This document shows, piece after piece, positions 11,383 to 49,127 of a DNA stretch of 64,000 nucleotides. The notes under the pieces are model-generated. The model was not told the origin of the DNA. It made no database searches and saw only the letters and a list, made by a program, of their open reading frames with translations. Position 1 is the stretch's first letter. The number at the start of each line of letters is the position of its first letter. The translations under genes and the position numbers were made by a program. Origin of the DNA: Pseudomonadota bacterium (GTDB lineage Bacteria > Pseudomonadota > Gammaproteobacteria > Burkholderiales > Sulfuriferulaceae); assembly GCA_021845925.1 (NCBI GenBank), contig JAJZUW010000004.1, forward strand, positions 26,668-90,667, written 5' to 3'.

Positions 11383-11504
11383 TCAGAACAGGCTAGCTTC
11401 CGATTCTAGCAGGATGTCCGGAAAATGTATGGTGCAATTCCGGACCTGGATCAAATCCGGCCAGATGCCACATAGCTTCGTCGCCAGGTAAGACACAAGG
11501 TCAT

Positions 11505-11890
11505 GTCATTGCGCGCGTAGTCGTGGAATCCATGCAAACGCAACCCGCTACGTCACTCCGCGCGTAGTCGCGGAATCCAGCAATCGGGTACTGCGCTGGC
11601 GGTTCGCGTGGATTCTGCGACTCCGCTTCGCTCCGCGCAGAATGACGGTGGGGAGAAGGCGCAGAATGACAGGACTAGAGCTCCGCGCACGACAATGCTA
11701 TGTCATTCCGCGCGCAGTCGCGGAATCCATGCAAAGGCAACTTGCTACGTCATTCCGCGCGTAGTCGCGGAATCCAGCAATCGGGTTCTGCGCTGGCGGT
11801 TCGCGTGGATTCTGCGACTCCGCTTCGCTCCGCGCAGAATGACGGTGGGGAGAAGGCGCAGAATGACGGTGGGGAGAAGGCGCAGAATGA
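11505..11890. repeat. Dispersed repeat cluster with internal 197-bp duplication
   Basis: Family A copies lie at 11505-11531, 11552-11578, 11702-11728 and 11749-11775, and family B copies at 11610-11646 and 11807-11843. Bases 11505-11670 and 11702-11867 are near-identical, so an A-A-B block has been duplicated in tandem. At the end of the second block a 24-bp unit (GACGGTGGGGAGAAGG plus GCGCAGAAT) is repeated, an early form of the expansion seen at 46718. The rest of the trxB-ftsK gap holds no gene; TATAAT at 11940-11945 may be the -10 element for ftsK, without a convincing -35. Confidence 0.88.
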
Positions 11891-12003
11891 CGGAGACGGA
11901 AGTTCATGCACAATGAACGGAATGGTGTGGAAATCAGTCTATAATCTCAGCATGCTGGACGAAGACGCCAGCATCCGATAATCCAAGAGGAATAACGCTG
12001 TCT

Positions 12004-29316: not shown

Positions 29317-29518
29317 GATTCCTGTGCATCAAGTCAAGATTCCGGTAAGTGTAGATGAAATTGATAGGGATCGCTACCTGACAATTTCACCAAAACGTCA
29401 TCAAATGGTCATATTTTTTGATGCGGATCTGATTTTTCATAAAAATCTACGCAAACAATAGATTTTATATTATTAACAATAAACATAGAATGCGGTTTTT
29501 CAAATCGAAGATCTCGCC

Positions 29519-30094
29519 ATGCCTTTCATTCAGTTCATCCGCACATCCTGGGCAAGATTACCGTTGCTGTTTCTGGCAGGACTGTTTACCCTGTCATGCC
29601 TTGCCGCCGACAACCCGGTCAGAGTTTTTGACCCGCAGGCCGCATCGTCAGTCAGTCACGCTGACGCCACTGCAAGCAGACCGGGCGAAGCAATACCGCC
29701 CCCAGGCAAGCCAGCCAGCCCTGGCTTTCTGGAACAACATGAAAATGCTGGCGGACATCTGATCAGCCGGCACGTTGGCAAAACCGAACAGGCGCTGAAA
29801 CAGCGCCTGCGAAACGAACCGCGCATCAGTGGCAGTTCAAGTTTCTACAATCATGCCATAGCCGAAACCACAGTCAGCAACGCAGTCCGGCAAAACCAGC
29901 CGCAAATCAGCCAGTGGCTTGGCAGCCACAGCGCCCGCCATGTCATTGTCTACAAAAGCACACAACCGGTTGGTCTCGCCATTCAGCGTGGTCAGCAAAA
30001 GGCCGTTCCGGTAAACTCGGCGCGAATCATTCTGCAAAGAGACCAGCGTATGCCCAATGGATACCGGATTGTGACGGGGTACCCAGTGCGATGA
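29519..30094 (+). CDS. Secreted toxin-like protein with bacterial RNase A-like (CdiA-CT type) domain
   Basis: This 191-residue protein has its own signal peptide (about 1-30, hydrophobic LPLLFLAGLFTLSCLAA) and a proline-rich linker. The C-terminal domain (about 70-190) matches the bacterial RNase A-like toxin family found at the tips of CdiA and other polymorphic toxins. Diagnostic segments are LEQHENAGGH, LISRHVGKT (candidate catalytic His80 and His85), ISGSSSFY, AETTVSNAV and a final GYRIVTGYP. Such domains cleave RNA. The domain is not attached to a CdiA, Rhs or VgrG carrier; it is a small Sec-exported protein, so release or surface display must follow another route. Its stop overlaps the immunity gene (ATGA). 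The upstream 29430-29500 stretch is strikingly AT-rich and no strong Shine-Dalgarno is visible. Confidence 0.85.
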   Translation: MPFIQFIRTSWARLPLLFLAGLFTLSCLAADNPVRVFDPQAASSVSHADATASRPGEAIPPPGKPASPGFLEQHENAGGHLISRHVGKTEQALKQRLRNEPRISGSSSFYNHAIAETTVSNAVRQNQPQISQWLGSHSARHVIVYKSTQPVGLAIQRGQQKAVPVNSARIILQRDQRMPNGYRIVTGYPVR

Positions 30095-30402
30095 CATTAC
30101 CCGGCATGACCTGTCTGCCCCAATTGCTGGGCAGTTATTTTCACCAGGACTGGCCGGATGAATTTGCCGACCACGAAGAAGCTTTCAGCCAGTTGCTCCA
30201 CAATGAATCACCCGACTGCCTGAAAACCGGGTTGGTAGAATTGCGCAAACTGCTGGCAACGGACATGAGCGAAGCAGAACTGCAAACCGTGCTGCAAGAC
30301 GATCTCGGCTGTGCATTCGCGCCAGCCAGCATCGGACTTGACTGCCGGCAATGGCTGATGCAGCTGGAATCCGTTCTGGCCGATCAATTGCATGACGGCT
30401 GA
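30091..30402 (+). CDS. CdiI-type immunity protein for the RNase A-like toxin
   Basis: This 103-residue acidic cytoplasmic protein matches the CdiI_2 family of contact-dependent inhibition immunity proteins. The opening QLLGSYFHQDWPDEFADHEEAF and later LRKLLATDMSEAELQTVL, DDLGCAF and CRQWLMQLE are the family pattern. CdiI proteins bind and block their cognate toxin domain in the cytoplasm. The ATG at 30091 overlaps the toxin stop as ATGA, so the pair is translationally coupled. A second ATG at 30106 is possible. Pairing with the preceding RNase A-like toxin is inferred from adjacency and from the families' usual association. Confidence 0.85.
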   Translation: MTLPGMTCLPQLLGSYFHQDWPDEFADHEEAFSQLLHNESPDCLKTGLVELRKLLATDMSEAELQTVLQDDLGCAFAPASIGLDCRQWLMQLESVLADQLHDG

Positions 30403-34248: not shown

Positions 34249-34863
34249 TTAGTTGGCCTGCATCACTCTATGAGCAGCCTCGCACATGGCATTTCTGGCA
34301 CGCGCAAGGCTTGGTGAGCGCGCCGCGGCTCTGTCTGGAGACCATTCGGCCTGCACCCAGCCCACCAAGCGACGATTGTAGCCAAGCCCCTGCCTTGCAA
34401 CGGCTGCTTTCTGAGCAACCAAATCGTCCTTTACTGCTCTAGGTGCTCTTTTAGCCAGTCCTAGCAGGTGCTGTTTGGGGTCTGGAAGAGTGTCCGGTTG
34501 CACCGGAAAGCGGCCTTGATCACCGAGCAAGTTTCCGAGCGCTACGTGGTCAGCAAGCAGCCATGACTCGACCTCTCGTTCCGCAATCCGCAACAAAAGG
34601 TTTTGGGGAGCTTGACGTCCAGCTCCCAACCAATCGTCCAGCAGAATCAACGGGCAGGCCAGCCTGTCCAAATCGGTCAGAACAATCACAATCCGGTGAT
34701 TGGCCAGCTGCCGCCAGCTATCCATGCCTGAGCGCAAGTATCCGAAACCTTTCTTCCTCAGCAACAGCGGCGGAGTTGCTGCCAAAACCGGATGCTCTGA
34801 TAACAGTTTCACGCCTACCGCTTCACTGAGTTCATCCTCAGTAGCCAATGCAACAGGCATCAT
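34249..34863 (-). CDS. TOPRIM-like putative nuclease partner of the adjacent AAA ATPase
   Basis: This is a 204-residue protein with the acidic pattern of a TOPRIM/DUF4276-like nuclease: ATEDELSE (Glu9-Glu14), the strand IVIVLTDLD (Asp64 and Asp66), and the helix REVESWLLAD (Glu97, Glu99). It overlaps the ATPase stop as ATGA (34860-34863), which decides the start; a TTG at 34869 would add two residues. Pairs of an ABC/AAA-type ATPase with a TOPRIM partner are known from anti-phage systems such as PARIS (AriA/AriB), and fused versions from OLD nucleases. I cannot assign it to a named system. Confidence 0.65.
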   Translation of the reverse strand: MMPVALATEDELSEAVGVKLLSEHPVLAATPPLLLRKKGFGYLRSGMDSWRQLANHRIVIVLTDLDRLACPLILLDDWLGAGRQAPQNLLLRIAEREVESWLLADHVALGNLLGDQGRFPVQPDTLPDPKQHLLGLAKRAPRAVKDDLVAQKAAVARQGLGYNRRLVGWVQAEWSPDRAAARSPSLARARNAMCEAAHRVMQAN

Positions 34864-36014
34864 TCCCAAAATCCAAGCTGATTGACCGAACTGGGGCGCG
34901 TCTTCGGCAGCACAACCTCAGCCACCGAAAGTCCCGCTTCGAGGGCGGAAGCTTCTCCTTCTTGCAAGGTCCGTCCGATTGAGCCATCCGCCGTGGCTTC
35001 CAGTAGAATCACGCCACGGCCATCGATTCCCGGATTACTGAGAAGCGCTTCGCTGTGGGTACTGACAACCACTTGTCGCTTTAACTTCCTGTTTTTTTGT
35101 AGGCGCTGGATGATGAGCGGGATTTCTTTCACGACCGCATCATTGAGTGAGATTTCCGGCTCCTCGAGCAGCAACATGGAGCTACCGTCCAAAAAGGCCC
35201 ACAACAGCCCGAGCAACCGCAAGGTTCCATCAGAAAAATGCTCTTCTGACTGCCATCCCGCGTTGGGTCTGTGATGTGAATACAGAGCTTCTAGATGAGG
35301 ATGACCCGAATCGTCCTTGACGAACCGCAGTTCCTTGAATTGCGGCACGGCCAATGTCAACGCTGCACTGATCTTCTTTAATCGCGTATTCCTGACACGC
35401 TCGGTCGTTTTGGCAATCCGTTCCAGAAAGCTCTGGCCAAACGGATCATTTTCCAAAGGTCGCCCAGCTAACTGATTCGCGAACTTCAACAACTGAGGTA
35501 CCAGATGCAAATAGGTGATCGAGCCGAAAAACTCCGCAAGCTCCCTGAATTCGGCATTGGCAGCAATTTGCTCAAGGCGCGTTTGGGTCAGTAGTACAGA
35601 ATCCTTACCATCATTTCCGTCAGGCCTCGAAAACAACCGATTGCCCTCGTGCCAAACTTCCTCTTTGGATACTAGGATACGTTGCGCACCCTTGCCTTCA
35701 GGCTTGAATCCCAGTACATAACGCCAGTTGGGAACTTCATCATCCGGAGAGTCCGACAGCTCCACATCAATACAAACTTCTGGGTCTCGGCGTGCATGAA
35801 GACAACGTAGCTTGCTGATCCCACCCCTGGCAATCACGGCCGCCTGTAGCCCCCCGCCGGCGGGTTTACCGATATCCCGCAAGAAACGGAACACATCCAG
35901 AAAATTAGATTTGCCGGAAGCATTTGGACCAAGGATATAGGTGACATCTCGCACTGGTATATCAAATGATCTGAAGTTGCGCCAGTTCTTTAACCTGACT
36001 CTTGTGACTTGCAT
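34860..36014 (-). CDS. AAA (ABC-type, SMC/RecF-like) ATPase of a two-gene module
   Basis: This is a 384-residue ATPase of the AAA_15/AAA_21 group. The N-terminus VTRVRLKNWRNFRSFDI leads to Walker A GPNASGKS (29-36). The C-terminal half has an ABC signature-like FSDGT (260-264), Walker B LLLEEPE (281-287) and the switch His320 in VVVSTHSEAL. No nuclease domain is fused; that function seems to sit in the overlapping TOPRIM-like gene. The ATG at 36014 is chosen for AAGGA 7 nt upstream; a TTG at 36029 is also in frame. The pair lies between a TA remnant and the guaA-linked island, supporting a defence role by context. Confidence 0.8.
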   Translation of the reverse strand: MQVTRVRLKNWRNFRSFDIPVRDVTYILGPNASGKSNFLDVFRFLRDIGKPAGGGLQAAVIARGGISKLRCLHARRDPEVCIDVELSDSPDDEVPNWRYVLGFKPEGKGAQRILVSKEEVWHEGNRLFSRPDGNDGKDSVLLTQTRLEQIAANAEFRELAEFFGSITYLHLVPQLLKFANQLAGRPLENDPFGQSFLERIAKTTERVRNTRLKKISAALTLAVPQFKELRFVKDDSGHPHLEALYSHHRPNAGWQSEEHFSDGTLRLLGLLWAFLDGSSMLLLEEPEISLNDAVVKEIPLIIQRLQKNRKLKRQVVVSTHSEALLSNPGIDGRGVILLEATADGSIGRTLQEGEASALEAGLSVAEVVLPKTRPSSVNQLGFWE

Positions 36015-36270
36015 CGCTTTTTCCTTCAAGACTGCACATGTTCTGGACGCCGTGCAACTCCAGAGTGGCTGCGAAGTTGGTTGTCGGTGGCACCCACTAC
36101 GCTCATCACGCCGAAACTTGTGCTTCCGTCCAGAATGCCATAGAAAAAACCTGCTTGGAAGTGCCGGATGTTGCCAATCAGCGCCACATCAAAAAAGAAA
36201 AAATCCAGCAAAATAAATAGCTTATATTTGTTTTAGTGCCTGTCGATGCCAGCCACTGCCAGACGCGAGA

Positions 36271-46585: not shown

Positions 46586-46723
46586 GTCATTCCGCGCGTA
46601 GTCACTGAATCCCCCAATCCAACACCTGGCCCGTCATTCCGCGCGTAGTCGCGGAATCCATGCAACGAGAGCTAAGTTCATGGCTCAGATTCTGCGACTC
46701 CGCTTCGCTCCGCGCAGAATGAC
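46586..46723. repeat. Dispersed repeats downstream of umuC
   Basis: Family A copies lie at 46586-46612, with an altered ACTGAATCC end, and at 46633-46659. A family B copy lies at 46687-46723 and runs straight into the 27-bp array. No gene occupies 46542-47061. Confidence 0.85.
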
Positions 46724-47014
46724 GAAGAAAGTGGTTCCGCGCAGAATGACGAAGAAAGTGGCTCCGCGCAGAATGACGAAGAAAGTGGCTCCGCGCAGAA
46801 TGACGAAGAAAGTGGCTCCGCGCAGAATGACGAAGAAAGTGGCTCCGCGCAGAATGACGAAGAAAGTGGCTCCGCGCAGAATGATGAAGAAAGTGGTTCC
46901 GCGCAGAATGACGAAGAAAGTGGTTCCGCGCAGAATGACGAAGAAAGTGGCTCCGCGCAGAATGACGAAGAAAGTGGCTCCGCGCAGAATGACGAAGAAA
47001 ATGGCTCGCCGTTT
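46718..47014. repeat. 27-bp tandem repeat array, 11 units
   Basis: The unit is AATGACGAAGAAAGTGGCTC followed by CGCGCAG, repeated without spacers. Variants differ by single bases (GTGGTT for GTGGCT in units 1, 7 and 8; AATGATG for AATGACG in unit 7), and the last unit decays (AAATGGCTCG). The end of each unit equals the end of a family B element, so the array arose by repeated duplication of that boundary. Because 27 is a multiple of 3, open frames run through on both strands, but neither has a ribosome site or a plausible product. The unit number is likely to vary between strains. Confidence 0.93.
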
Positions 47015-47061: not shown

Positions 47062-47529
47062 CTACCGCACCCCTTGCCAGCATTTCGCCTGATCCAGGAC
47101 TATGGCATCGCTCGTGACCAGCCAATCCGACAGTGCGTCCGCGGGCATGACCATCCCCCGGCTGCCAGGCACACAAAACAGCTCCAGCGGCAGATTATCC
47201 GCCACCAGCAAGGGCAACAAATCAAACATCAGCGTCTGTTTGCCAATCTGCCGGGGCGCATATTCCTTGTGCCAGCAAGAGTACTGATGTGCATTCCAGT
47301 CCTCGGCATGTTCCCATGTCGGCCAGAGCGGCAAGGCGAGCCGGGATGCGCCGTCATGGATCAACAGCCAGTGCCGTCCGCGACACAACCCCCACACATG
47401 ATGGCATGTCTGCAAACTTTCCATGAAATAACGAAAGCGGGCTTCGGGCGCAAGCGCTGCGCTTTCAACCAGTTGTCGGGGATGTCTACCACACCTGCCC
47501 GATCCGGATGGTTCATAAACCAGCTCCAT
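47062..47529 (-). CDS. DUF2750 family protein
   Basis: This 155-residue soluble protein of the DUF2750 type shows ARFRYFMESLQTCHHVWGLC, LALPLWPTWEHAEDW, a W-rich CWHKEYAPRQI and FCVPGSRGMVMPADALSDWL. Function is unknown. The 3' end lies about 50 bp from the tandem array. It is followed upstream by the secreted gene pair in the same direction, with a 68-bp gap. Confidence 0.65.
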   Translation of the reverse strand: MELVYEPSGSGRCGRHPRQLVESAALAPEARFRYFMESLQTCHHVWGLCRGRHWLLIHDGASRLALPLWPTWEHAEDWNAHQYSCWHKEYAPRQIGKQTLMFDLLPLLVADNLPLELFCVPGSRGMVMPADALSDWLVTSDAIVLDQAKCWQGVR

Positions 47530-47597: not shown

Positions 47598-48203
47598 TCA
47601 TGGCGAACCCGAAAGCGAACCGGAATCAGGCAGCGATCCGGAAGCGTTATTGCCGGACAGATCGTAAGCCTGCACCGGTGGCTCATCACTGCGACCGGTC
47701 TGCGTTGTCATCCCCAAAGCCTTGTCAGACTCATGTACCGGAAGCGAGGATTTTCTGGCGTTTTTTCCCGGGCGGCTCTGGGCCGTATTGGCAGCCATCA
47801 GGGCGTTGCGCTTTTTGTCAATCCGGCTGAACCGGTCAATCAGCCAGTCACGCTGGTGCAATGGCAATTGTTTGTGAACGAGCATGGCGCGCAGTTCTGC
47901 CTCGCGTCGCTGTTTTTTCGGACTGGGGGAATTGCTTGGCGGATAACCGCTGGCCAGTGCATGGACATCGCGCCGTTGCCAGCTATGGCTGTTGCCCTGA
48001 CGGCTTGCCGGCATAGGTGACGGCGGTCTTTTGGCTGCGTCGTTTTCGTATTCGCGCATCACCTGCTGACGCCAGGCCATCCGGTTATCTGCTGGGCTCT
48101 GGTCCCGGACAACCGGTTTTGCACCGCTGGTTGTGGTGTCTGCATTCGCCAGCGGCGCTGCCAGCCACAACACCATGGGTAACAGCACAAAAACTGACCG
48201 CAT
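47598..48203 (-). CDS. Secreted protein sharing a segment with the adjacent HNH toxin-like protein
   Basis: This 201-residue protein has a signal peptide (about 1-21, ending APLANA). The rest is low-complexity and charged. Residues about 101-135 (EAELRAMLVHKQLPLHQRDW, then LIDRFSRIDKKRNAL) parallel residues 152-184 of the upstream neighbour (EARLRQLGSDPKASSADRGW, then IRQEINRVDRNRSL). In polymorphic toxins this helical element precedes an HNH-type nuclease, but here no nuclease follows. It could be a decayed duplicate or an accessory protein. The stop lies in a Ser/Gly/Pro-rich tail. It begins 12 nt after its neighbour. Confidence 0.6.
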   Translation of the reverse strand: MRSVFVLLPMVLWLAAPLANADTTTSGAKPVVRDQSPADNRMAWRQQVMREYENDAAKRPPSPMPASRQGNSHSWQRRDVHALASGYPPSNSPSPKKQRREAELRAMLVHKQLPLHQRDWLIDRFSRIDKKRNALMAANTAQSRPGKNARKSSLPVHESDKALGMTTQTGRSDEPPVQAYDLSGNNASGSLPDSGSLSGSP

Positions 48204-48215
48204 CGTATTCCCCGT

Positions 48216-49127
48216 TTACTCAGCCCGACTGGCAGCAAGGCTGGAAACCGCTCCCGCCTGATTGCCAGCAGATGTATCAAATACCTGGACTGTTGACGGC
48301 GACTGGCCAACCTGATTCCTGTAGACATCGGGAACGCGTTCTTTCAGACGCCTGCCCCACTGGTCACCTCCGACATCGGGGTTATTCATGTCACGGTGAT
48401 AATCCCAGCGGTGGTCCAGCGCACCGGTGTGCTGCAAACGGTGCAGGTCGGCATCCTGCAGGTTGGCATACACGAATCCGTACCCCTTGTGATTTTCACG
48501 CCCGCGCTCGTGCGCCAGCTGTTTGCCGGGCGGCATGCGCAAGGTATCGCCGCCGGAGCGTTGTTTGACCGGCAGGCTGCGGTTACGGTCGACCCGGTTG
48601 ATTTCCTGACGGATCCATCCGCGATCGGCACTGCTGGCTTTCGGATCACTGCCAAGCTGGCGCAGGCGTGCCTCGTGGTCGTACTTGCGGTCATAATCCG
48701 GATTGCGCGCCGGCAAACCGCTTTTTGAGCCATCGTCGCTATAACCCGGTCTGTACGGATCAAATCCGGGCATGGCAGCATAGGCAGCCTGCTTTTTGTA
48801 ATACCAGTTTTTGCGCGGATCTGGCGCCAGCTTTGAATAACGTGAATTCGCCCTGTCTTGTTGCCCGGCGTCCCGCAAAGCGCCCGCACCACTGCCCTGG
48901 CGCAATTCCGCAGCCACCGGCTGCCTGACGGATGCCCCGCTGTTGCGCTGGACCTGCGCATCTGCGCTGATGGTTTGTTCATCCGCCCTGACCGGAACGC
49001 CGGTCAGGGTTGTCAAAACCAGCCAGAGCAGCAGCCAGACTGTACCAGATGTGACATGCGCCGGACGGCTACCCCACCCGGATTGCCTGTGCCGTGGATA
49101 CCGATTGTGTCCGCTGAAATATGGCAT
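48216..49127 (-). CDS. Secreted protein with polymorphic-toxin HNH-type nuclease-like domain
   Basis: This is a 303-residue protein with a long-n-region signal peptide (hydrophobic core about 28-42, cleavage near VRADE). Residues about 150-190 form a helical pre-nuclease element, RGWIRQEINRVDRNRSL. Residues about 196-235 show PPGKQLAHERGRE, KGYGFVYANLQDADLHRLQH, a His/Glu pattern like the HNH/Endo VII-type toxin domains (polymorphic toxin type 8 in Rhs-like proteins). His206, Glu211, His229 and His233 are the candidate metal or catalytic residues. No carrier module is fused, and no recognisable immunity gene follows. AAGGA just upstream supports the start. The upstream 49170-49200 stretch is AT-rich. 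Confidence 0.68.
   Translation of the reverse strand: MPYFSGHNRYPRHRQSGWGSRPAHVTSGTVWLLLWLVLTTLTGVPVRADEQTISADAQVQRNSGASVRQPVAAELRQGSGAGALRDAGQQDRANSRYSKLAPDPRKNWYYKKQAAYAAMPGFDPYRPGYSDDGSKSGLPARNPDYDRKYDHEARLRQLGSDPKASSADRGWIRQEINRVDRNRSLPVKQRSGGDTLRMPPGKQLAHERGRENHKGYGFVYANLQDADLHRLQHTGALDHRWDYHRDMNNPDVGGDQWGRRLKERVPDVYRNQVGQSPSTVQVFDTSAGNQAGAVSSLAASRAE

What the first reader, a model, noticed from the sequence alone, without database searches (positions are those of the whole stretch)
29519..30402. Self-contained secreted RNase A-like toxin with coupled CdiI-type immunity gene, free of any CDI, Rhs or T6SS carrier
The toxin domain belongs to a family normally found at the C-terminal tip of CdiA and other large delivery proteins. 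Here it is fused only to a signal peptide and a short Pro-rich linker, and its stop overlaps a CdiI_2-type immunity gene. This implies a small exported ribonuclease used outside the classical contact-dependent machinery, for competition, defence against grazers or periplasmic action, or a domestication event. The AT-rich upstream region hints at acquisition. A weak T-L-S-C lipobox leaves surface lipoprotein display open.
Basis: partly seen in the sequence, partly recalled or inferred. Interest (0 to 1): 0.85.

Follow-up and report, generated by a model that had tools for sequence, protein, structure and literature searches.

The report
Carrier-free exported RNase toxin with immunity
This bacterium carries a small RNA-cutting toxin of a kind normally found at the tip of giant contact-killing proteins, here attached only to an export signal and paired with its own antidote gene; the same slimmed-down form has arisen several times in unrelated bacteria, so it looks like a recurring strategy that has been little described.

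Summary
Window 29519-30094 (+) encodes 191 aa: a signal-peptide-like N-terminus, a disordered linker and a complete RNAse_A_bac domain (PF18431, 7e-32). The ATGA-overlapping gene 30091-30402 is CdiI_2 (PF18593, 5e-22). Both predicted folds match the Yersinia kristensenii CdiA-CT/CdiI crystal structure (toxin Z 18.7, rmsd 1.1). All four catalytic residues are kept (H85, R96, T186, Y188).

The protein is carrier-free. The genome gives no hit for TssC (T6SS) or GspL (T2SS); a TPS search was also empty but had no working control. One other species of 18 in the genus has the same architecture. Carrier-free exported copies with an adjacent immunity gene also occur in a cyanobacterium, a verrucomicrobial MAG and a Firmicute, and a weaker case in another proteobacterium. 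A tree forces at least three changes between carrier and carrier-free forms and suggests five.

Acquisition is not supported: gene GC equals the genome's. A lipoprotein is unlikely. The same window holds a second exported carrier-free toxin, Ntox8, with its known partner Imm16/DUF2750.

Most likely it works like barnase-barstar or a short secreted polymorphic toxin: exported by Sec and released by an unknown route, while CdiI protects the producer. Delivery and target are inferred.

The parts
29441..29500 (+). AT-rich promoter region: 8-bp inverted repeat AAAATCTA (29442-29449) / TAGATTTT (29459-29466); sigma-70-like TTTATA-16-TAGAAT at 29464-29491
   Evidence: Sequence; GC 0.25 at 29400-29500, lowest 0.05% of 100-bp windows; promoter scan 2 hits against 1.0 expected, so weak.
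29519..29608 (+). Signal-peptide-like N-terminus, residues 1-30 (MPFIQFIRTSWARLPLLFLAGLFTLSCLAA)
   Evidence: n-region charge +2, hydrophobic core, AxA-like site; low-confidence, unstructured in the AlphaFold2 model.
29609..29746 (+). Short disordered Ala/Pro/Ser-rich linker, residues 31-76
   Evidence: No Pfam match; pLDDT 48-70 through residue 70.
29747..30091 (+). RNase A superfamily domain (PF18431), residues 77-191, catalytic H85, R96, T186, Y188
   Evidence: PF18431 7.2e-32; 43% identical to 5E3E chain B; VIA-align Z 18.7, rmsd 1.1 over 112 residues; catalytic residues aligned.
29519..30094 (+). Complete toxin gene, 191 aa
   Evidence: ORF; purifying selection against the congener copy, dN 0.34, dS 1.85.
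30091..30402 (+). CdiI_2 immunity gene, 103 aa, no signal peptide (cytoplasmic), ATGA overlap with the toxin stop
   Evidence: PF18593 4.9e-22; AlphaFold2 mean pLDDT 93, Foldseek 5E3E chain A prob 1.00, rmsd 1.8.

Best explanation
A small, self-standing toxin-immunity pair. The toxin is an RNase A-superfamily ribonuclease with the CdiA-CT(Ykris)-type active site. A Sec signal peptide replaces the giant CdiA/Rhs carrier, so the toxin is exported to the periplasm and cleaved there. It then leaves the cell by a route not encoded beside it: lysis, vesicles or an unrecognised exporter. The co-translated, signal-less CdiI_2 protein stays in the cytoplasm, covers the active site of un-exported or re-entering toxin, and so makes producer and siblings immune. 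Functionally it works like barnase-barstar and like the short Sec-exported branch of polymorphic toxins: an exported RNase that harms or scavenges RNA of non-immune bacteria. Shown here: domain, fold, active site, immunity partner, coupling, carrier-free architecture, recurrence, purifying selection. Inferred: cleavage of the signal peptide, RNase activity, inhibition by CdiI, release, entry into targets.
For: PF18431 and PF18593 far above cut-off. Both folds match the two chains of 5E3E, whose toxin is an RNase blocked at its active site by CdiI (PMC9086364). Catalytic residues kept; H85, R96 and T186 invariant in 25 aligned sequences. ATGA overlap. Same compact architecture in a second species of the genus (L013: 162 aa, ATGA overlap) beside the DUF748 gene that also lies upstream in the window. 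Purifying selection on both genes. Signal peptide plus domain plus CdiI_2 in Microcoleus, Verrucomicrobia and Lihuaxuella, among ordinary chromosomal genes with no carrier. At least 3 forced changes between carrier and carrier-free on the tree. A second exported toxin with its known immunity family, Ntox8/Imm16 (DUF2750), lies 18 kb away. Signal-peptide-only export is a recognised trafficking mode of polymorphic toxins (PMC3482391), and MafB is released in a signal-peptide-dependent way (PMC4287609).
Against: No activity, secretion or inhibition was measured. No T2SS GspL was found, so the route across the outer membrane is unknown and the enzyme may stay periplasmic. No receptor-binding or translocation part is visible, so entry into target bacteria is unexplained. 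The signal peptide was judged by eye and hydropathy only. Only 2 of 18 species of the genus carry it.
Confidence: 0.6

Rival explanations
1. Periplasmic or extracellular scavenging RNase: the enzyme stays in the periplasm, or leaks out, and degrades RNA for nutrients or against incoming nucleic acid. CdiI only protects the producer's own cytoplasm before export.
For: No GspL and no TssC in a 99.94% complete genome; no uptake part in the protein. Relative L025 has lipobox LVGC followed by Asp, which in other Gram-negatives favours inner-membrane retention (established knowledge).
Against: Immunity proteins are diverse (17-43% identical) and the toxin family is otherwise used in competition. A second dedicated toxin-immunity pair sits nearby.
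Confidence: 0.2
2. Anti-eukaryote weapon: like Ribocin of Pseudomonas aeruginosa, an exported RNase A-fold enzyme taken up by grazing protists, where it cuts RNA.
For: Ribocin has a signal peptide, no known carrier and the same fold, and acts in a grazer host (PMC13189344).
Against: A cognate bacterial immunity gene is kept here and in the carrier-free relatives. Zhang et al. take a missing immunity gene as the sign of host-directed toxins.
Confidence: 0.1
3. Intracellular toxin-antitoxin-like module: the N-terminus is an uncleaved membrane anchor and the pair regulates or kills the producer itself.
For: Overlapping genes and a small size resemble toxin-antitoxin operons. In both species AT-rich inverted repeats precede the gene.
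Against: An export leader is present in every carrier-free member, with differing leader sequences and both lipoprotein and non-lipoprotein types. A cytoplasmic TA toxin would not need export.
Confidence: 0.06
4. Orphan or decaying CdiA-CT/CdiI cassette left from a lost CDI locus.
For: Nearest carrier-bound relative by tree is a longer Caballeronia protein. Orphan cassettes are known in CDI loci.
Against: It has its own start and signal peptide. No TPS domain was found (control did not ring). dN/dS is about 0.18 and the active site intact. The same architecture persists in a sister species near a conserved DUF748 gene.
Confidence: 0.03

Closest known systems
CdiA-CT/CdiI of Yersinia kristensenii (PDB 5E3E)
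   Same: Same toxin domain (43% identity, Z 18.7), same four catalytic residues, same immunity family and fold, toxin followed by immunity.
   Different: There the domain is the C-terminal tip of a giant CdiA delivered by CdiB; here a signal peptide and a 46-residue linker are all that precede it.
NCBIfam NF041883 RNase A-like domain-containing lipoprotein
   Same: Same small size and layout: export leader plus RNase A-like domain (71.8 bits; congener copy 91.1 bits).
   Different: Far below the curated cut-off of 200 bits; no canonical lipobox here.
Barnase-barstar (Bacillus amyloliquefaciens)
   Same: Small secreted RNase with a cytoplasmic protein inhibitor and no carrier; works alike.
   Different: Unrelated domain families (PF18431 and PF18593 here); Gram-negative envelope.
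MafB-MafI of Neisseria
   Same: Signal-peptide-dependent export, immunity gene downstream, no T5SS/T6SS; one MafB-CT has the RNase A fold (PMC9970974).
   Different: MafB has an N-terminal DUF1020 domain and sits in islands with cassettes; no such domain here.
Ribocin (RbcN) of Pseudomonas aeruginosa
   Same: Signal peptide plus a lone RNase A-fold domain.
   Different: Reported as 15% identical to CdiA-CT(Ykris), without annotated domains, acting on eukaryotic ribosomes; no immunity gene described.

Membership tests
PF18431 RNAse_A_bac (bacterial RNase A superfamily) | Full-length profile match above curated cut-off | tested here: met
   111 bits against 27, profile 1-113 of 113
PF18431 RNAse_A_bac (bacterial RNase A superfamily) | Catalytic His/Arg/Thr/Tyr | tested here: met
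   H85, R96, T186, Y188 align with H175, R186, T276, Y278
PF18431 RNAse_A_bac (bacterial RNase A superfamily) | Fold of CdiA-CT(Ykris) | tested here: met
   pLDDT about 97 in the domain, Z 18.7, rmsd 1.1, 112 aligned
PF18431 RNAse_A_bac (bacterial RNase A superfamily) | Ribonuclease activity | not testable with these tools
   needs an assay
PF18593 CdiI_2 immunity | Profile match, all-alpha fold, adjacent to its toxin | tested here: met
   78.9 bits against 26.7; 5E3E chain A rmsd 1.8
Contact-dependent inhibition (CDI) system | Toxin fused to a TPS-domain filament (CdiA) | tested here: not met
   191-aa protein with only PF18431
Contact-dependent inhibition (CDI) system | TPS-domain protein elsewhere in the genome | tested here: inconclusive
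   0 hits for PF05860, but no control genome rang
T6SS effector | T6SS sheath in the genome | tested here: not met
   PF05943 0 hits, control rang
T2SS substrate | T2SS apparatus present | tested here: not met
   PF05134 0 hits, controls rang; only GspL was tested
NF041883 RNase A-like lipoprotein | Curated score 200 and lipobox | tested here: not met
   71.8 bits; TLSC not canonical
MafB polymorphic toxin | DUF1020 N-terminal domain | tested here: not met
   only PF18431 found in Pfam
Barnase family | Barnase-type RNase domain | tested here: not met
   only PF18431 found; resemblance is functional
Short Sec-exported polymorphic toxin (Zhang et al. 2012 'T2SS/Sec-dependent' mode) | Signal peptide, C-terminal polymorphic toxin domain, linked immunity gene | tested here: met
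   signal peptide by hydropathy only

The most novel reading that the evidence does not exclude
A carrier-free class of exported toxin-immunity pairs, evolved repeatedly by swapping giant CdiA/Rhs carriers for a bare Sec leader. They act on neighbours without any dedicated delivery machine, even in genomes that lack T2SS, T5SS and T6SS, which would imply an unrecognised release and entry route.
Probability: 0.18. Interest if true: 0.75.

Novelty: new variant of a known kind. Interest (0 to 1): 0.5.

Why it matters
[quoted passage not shown] This pair, and its independent counterparts in other phyla, keep the immunity gene but have no carrier; in this genome no T6SS sheath or T2SS GspL was found. 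That makes a concrete test possible: can a nuclease normally thrown by a contact-dependent machine work as a plain exported enzyme, and how does it leave and enter cells? It also warns that genome surveys keyed on carriers miss such pairs.

Tried and rejected
Recent horizontal acquisition judged by composition: rejected, gene GC and GC3 are close to the genome's. Link with the neighbouring HK-YfiR-TonB-GGDEF/EAL-response regulator block: rejected, in the sister species that block lies on another contig with other neighbours, while the toxin sits next to the DUF748 gene. Phage or virus carriage: tblastn in phage records and a scan of viral contigs found nothing. Plasmid carriage: only Pantoea plasmids, and there the domain sits in about 280-aa proteins without a signal peptide. 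First scan of genome contigs with the single protein found nothing; the alignment query found 27 loci. Shared trafficking element between the RNase A-like and Ntox8 toxins: none by BLASTP. No paper was found on the lipoprotein form. An anti-phage system in PADLOC: no match for either gene.

Full report
Check of the observation. The toxin ORF 29519-30094 and the immunity ORF 30091-30402 are present as described, overlapping in ATGA. Pfam gives only PF18431 RNAse_A_bac for the first (7.2e-32, residues 79-189, whole profile) and PF18593 CdiI_2 for the second (4.9e-22). In PDB sequences the best hits are the two chains of one complex, 5E3E, CdiA-CT/CdiI of Yersinia kristensenii (1.1e-23 and 0.001). 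Each family has exactly one place in the 2.34 Mb genome, and the two are adjacent. The finding is real.

Fold and active site. AlphaFold2 with 25 aligned sequences gives the domain a pLDDT near 97 and leaves residues 1-65 disordered. Against solved structures the model matches 5E3E chain D with Z 18.7, rmsd 1.1 over 112 residues. Next, at the level where fold alone proves little, come vertebrate RNase A family members at Z 4.5-5.1. The residues required in CdiA-CT(Ykris), H175, R186, T276 and Y278 (PMC9086364), are H85, R96, T186 and Y188 here. The first three are invariant in all 25 aligned sequences. The immunity protein is an all-helical 103-aa fold (pLDDT 93) matching 5E3E chain A at rmsd 1.8. 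It has no leader, so it should be cytoplasmic.

Export and carrier. Residues 1-30 have a positive n-region, a hydrophobic core and a CLAAD cleavage-like site. The only cysteine (C27) lies in TLSC, which does not fit the lipobox, and the sister species' copy has no lipobox; a soluble exported protein is more likely. No carrier domain is present. Genome searches found no TssC (T6SS) and no GspL (T2SS), with working controls, and no TPS domain, without a working control. How the protein would cross the outer membrane is therefore open.

Evolution. In the genus, 2 of 18 species have the domain. The second (G370, the same contig as L033, deposited as Thiobacillus sp. UBA2487) has a 162-aa version of the same design with an ATGA-overlapping CdiI_2. 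There it directly follows a DUF748 gene whose orthologue lies 6.5 kb upstream in the window; a histidine kinase/YfiR/TonB receptor/GGDEF-EAL/response regulator block lies between in the window but on another contig in G370. This suggests an old shared location rather than two recent gains. The two genes evolve under purifying selection (toxin domain dN 0.34, dS 1.85; immunity 0.53, 1.63; dS near saturation, so the ratios are rough). Gene GC matches the window; only the roughly 100-bp promoter region is AT-rich, and the G370 copy also has an AT-rich stretch upstream.

Recurrence. Among fetched relatives most domains are at the end of long CdiA, Rhs or T7SS-like proteins, or of about 270-340-aa leaderless proteins. 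Carrier-free exported versions with a CdiI_2 gene behind them also occur in Microcoleus (176 aa, ATGA), a verrucomicrobial MAG (about 184 aa, ATGA) and Lihuaxuella thermophila (184 aa, lipobox LTAC). A further case, L025 (lipobox LVGC), has only a sub-threshold CdiI_2-like neighbour. Their flanks are ordinary chromosomal genes. On a maximum-likelihood tree the six carrier-free rows need five changes, at least three forced by well supported branches; some placements, L025 above all, are unsure. So the bare form has arisen, or been kept, more than once.

A second pair in the window. 48216-49127 (-) encodes 303 aa with a leader and Ntox8 (PF15545, 41.1 bits against 25), including the HxR and HxxxH motifs listed for that toxin. 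47062-47529 (-) encodes DUF2750 (PF11042), which Zhang et al. name Imm16 and list as the immunity partner of Ntox8. A 201-aa exported protein of unknown function lies between. It, too, is carrier-free. Two unrelated exported toxin-immunity pairs in 64 kb make a shared strategy plausible; their N-termini share no element.

What it most likely does. Shown: domain, fold, active site, coupled immunity, lack of carrier, recurrence. Inferred: Sec export, RNase action, protection by CdiI, release and action on non-immune bacteria. It works like barnase-barstar (PMC8837141) and like the short signal-peptide-only branch of polymorphic toxins (PMC3482391; MafB, PMC4287609), but it is not a member of the barnase or MafB families. 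Ribocin (PMC13189344) shows that a lone exported RNase A-fold enzyme can serve against a eukaryotic grazer; the immunity gene here makes a bacterial target likelier.

Novelty. The domain family, the immunity family and signal-peptide-only polymorphic toxins are known, and NCBI already names an RNase A-like lipoprotein family (NF041883), though no paper on it was found. What is new is the carrier-free, non-lipoprotein pair, its repeated origin, and its presence in a genome where no T6SS sheath or GspL was found. I rate it a new variant of a known kind.

Noticed in passing
window 48216-49127 (-), 47598-48203 (-), 47062-47529 (-): Second carrier-free exported toxin: signal peptide + Ntox8 (PF15545), then a 201-aa exported protein of unknown function, then DUF2750/Imm16, the known partner of Ntox8.
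   Followed up: partly
window 34249-36029 (-): Candidate anti-phage pair: AAA ATPase (PADLOC HEC-01A, 6.6e-150) and DUF4276-like partner (HEC-01B, 1.9e-49).
   Followed up: no
window 46707-47007; 11503-11893: Tandem arrays built on GCGCAGAATGACG..., including 11 copies of a 27-bp unit at 97% match; the words CCGCGCGTAGTCGCGGAATCC and GCGCAGAATGACG occur at both places and may be a dispersed repeat.
   Followed up: no
L076 7537-8374 (-) (same stretch as L025): Lipoprotein RNase A-like gene directly downstream of carotenoid/beta-carotene dioxygenase genes, with a CdiI_2-like neighbour below threshold.
   Followed up: partly
L013 7852-7883: Perfect 14-bp inverted repeat AATTATTTATATTT-4-AAATATAAATAATT just upstream of the sister toxin gene; the window gene has a shorter 8-bp one; possible operators.
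   Followed up: no
G074 (L004, L008-L011): One genome of the same order holds several RNAse_A_bac places (five matched stretches), some broken, behind a common leaderless N-terminal domain (EGIxIVxSxxQLAAxL...GAGALCxAPEPT) also seen in Pantoea plasmids and others; looks like a carrier domain I could not name.
   Followed up: partly
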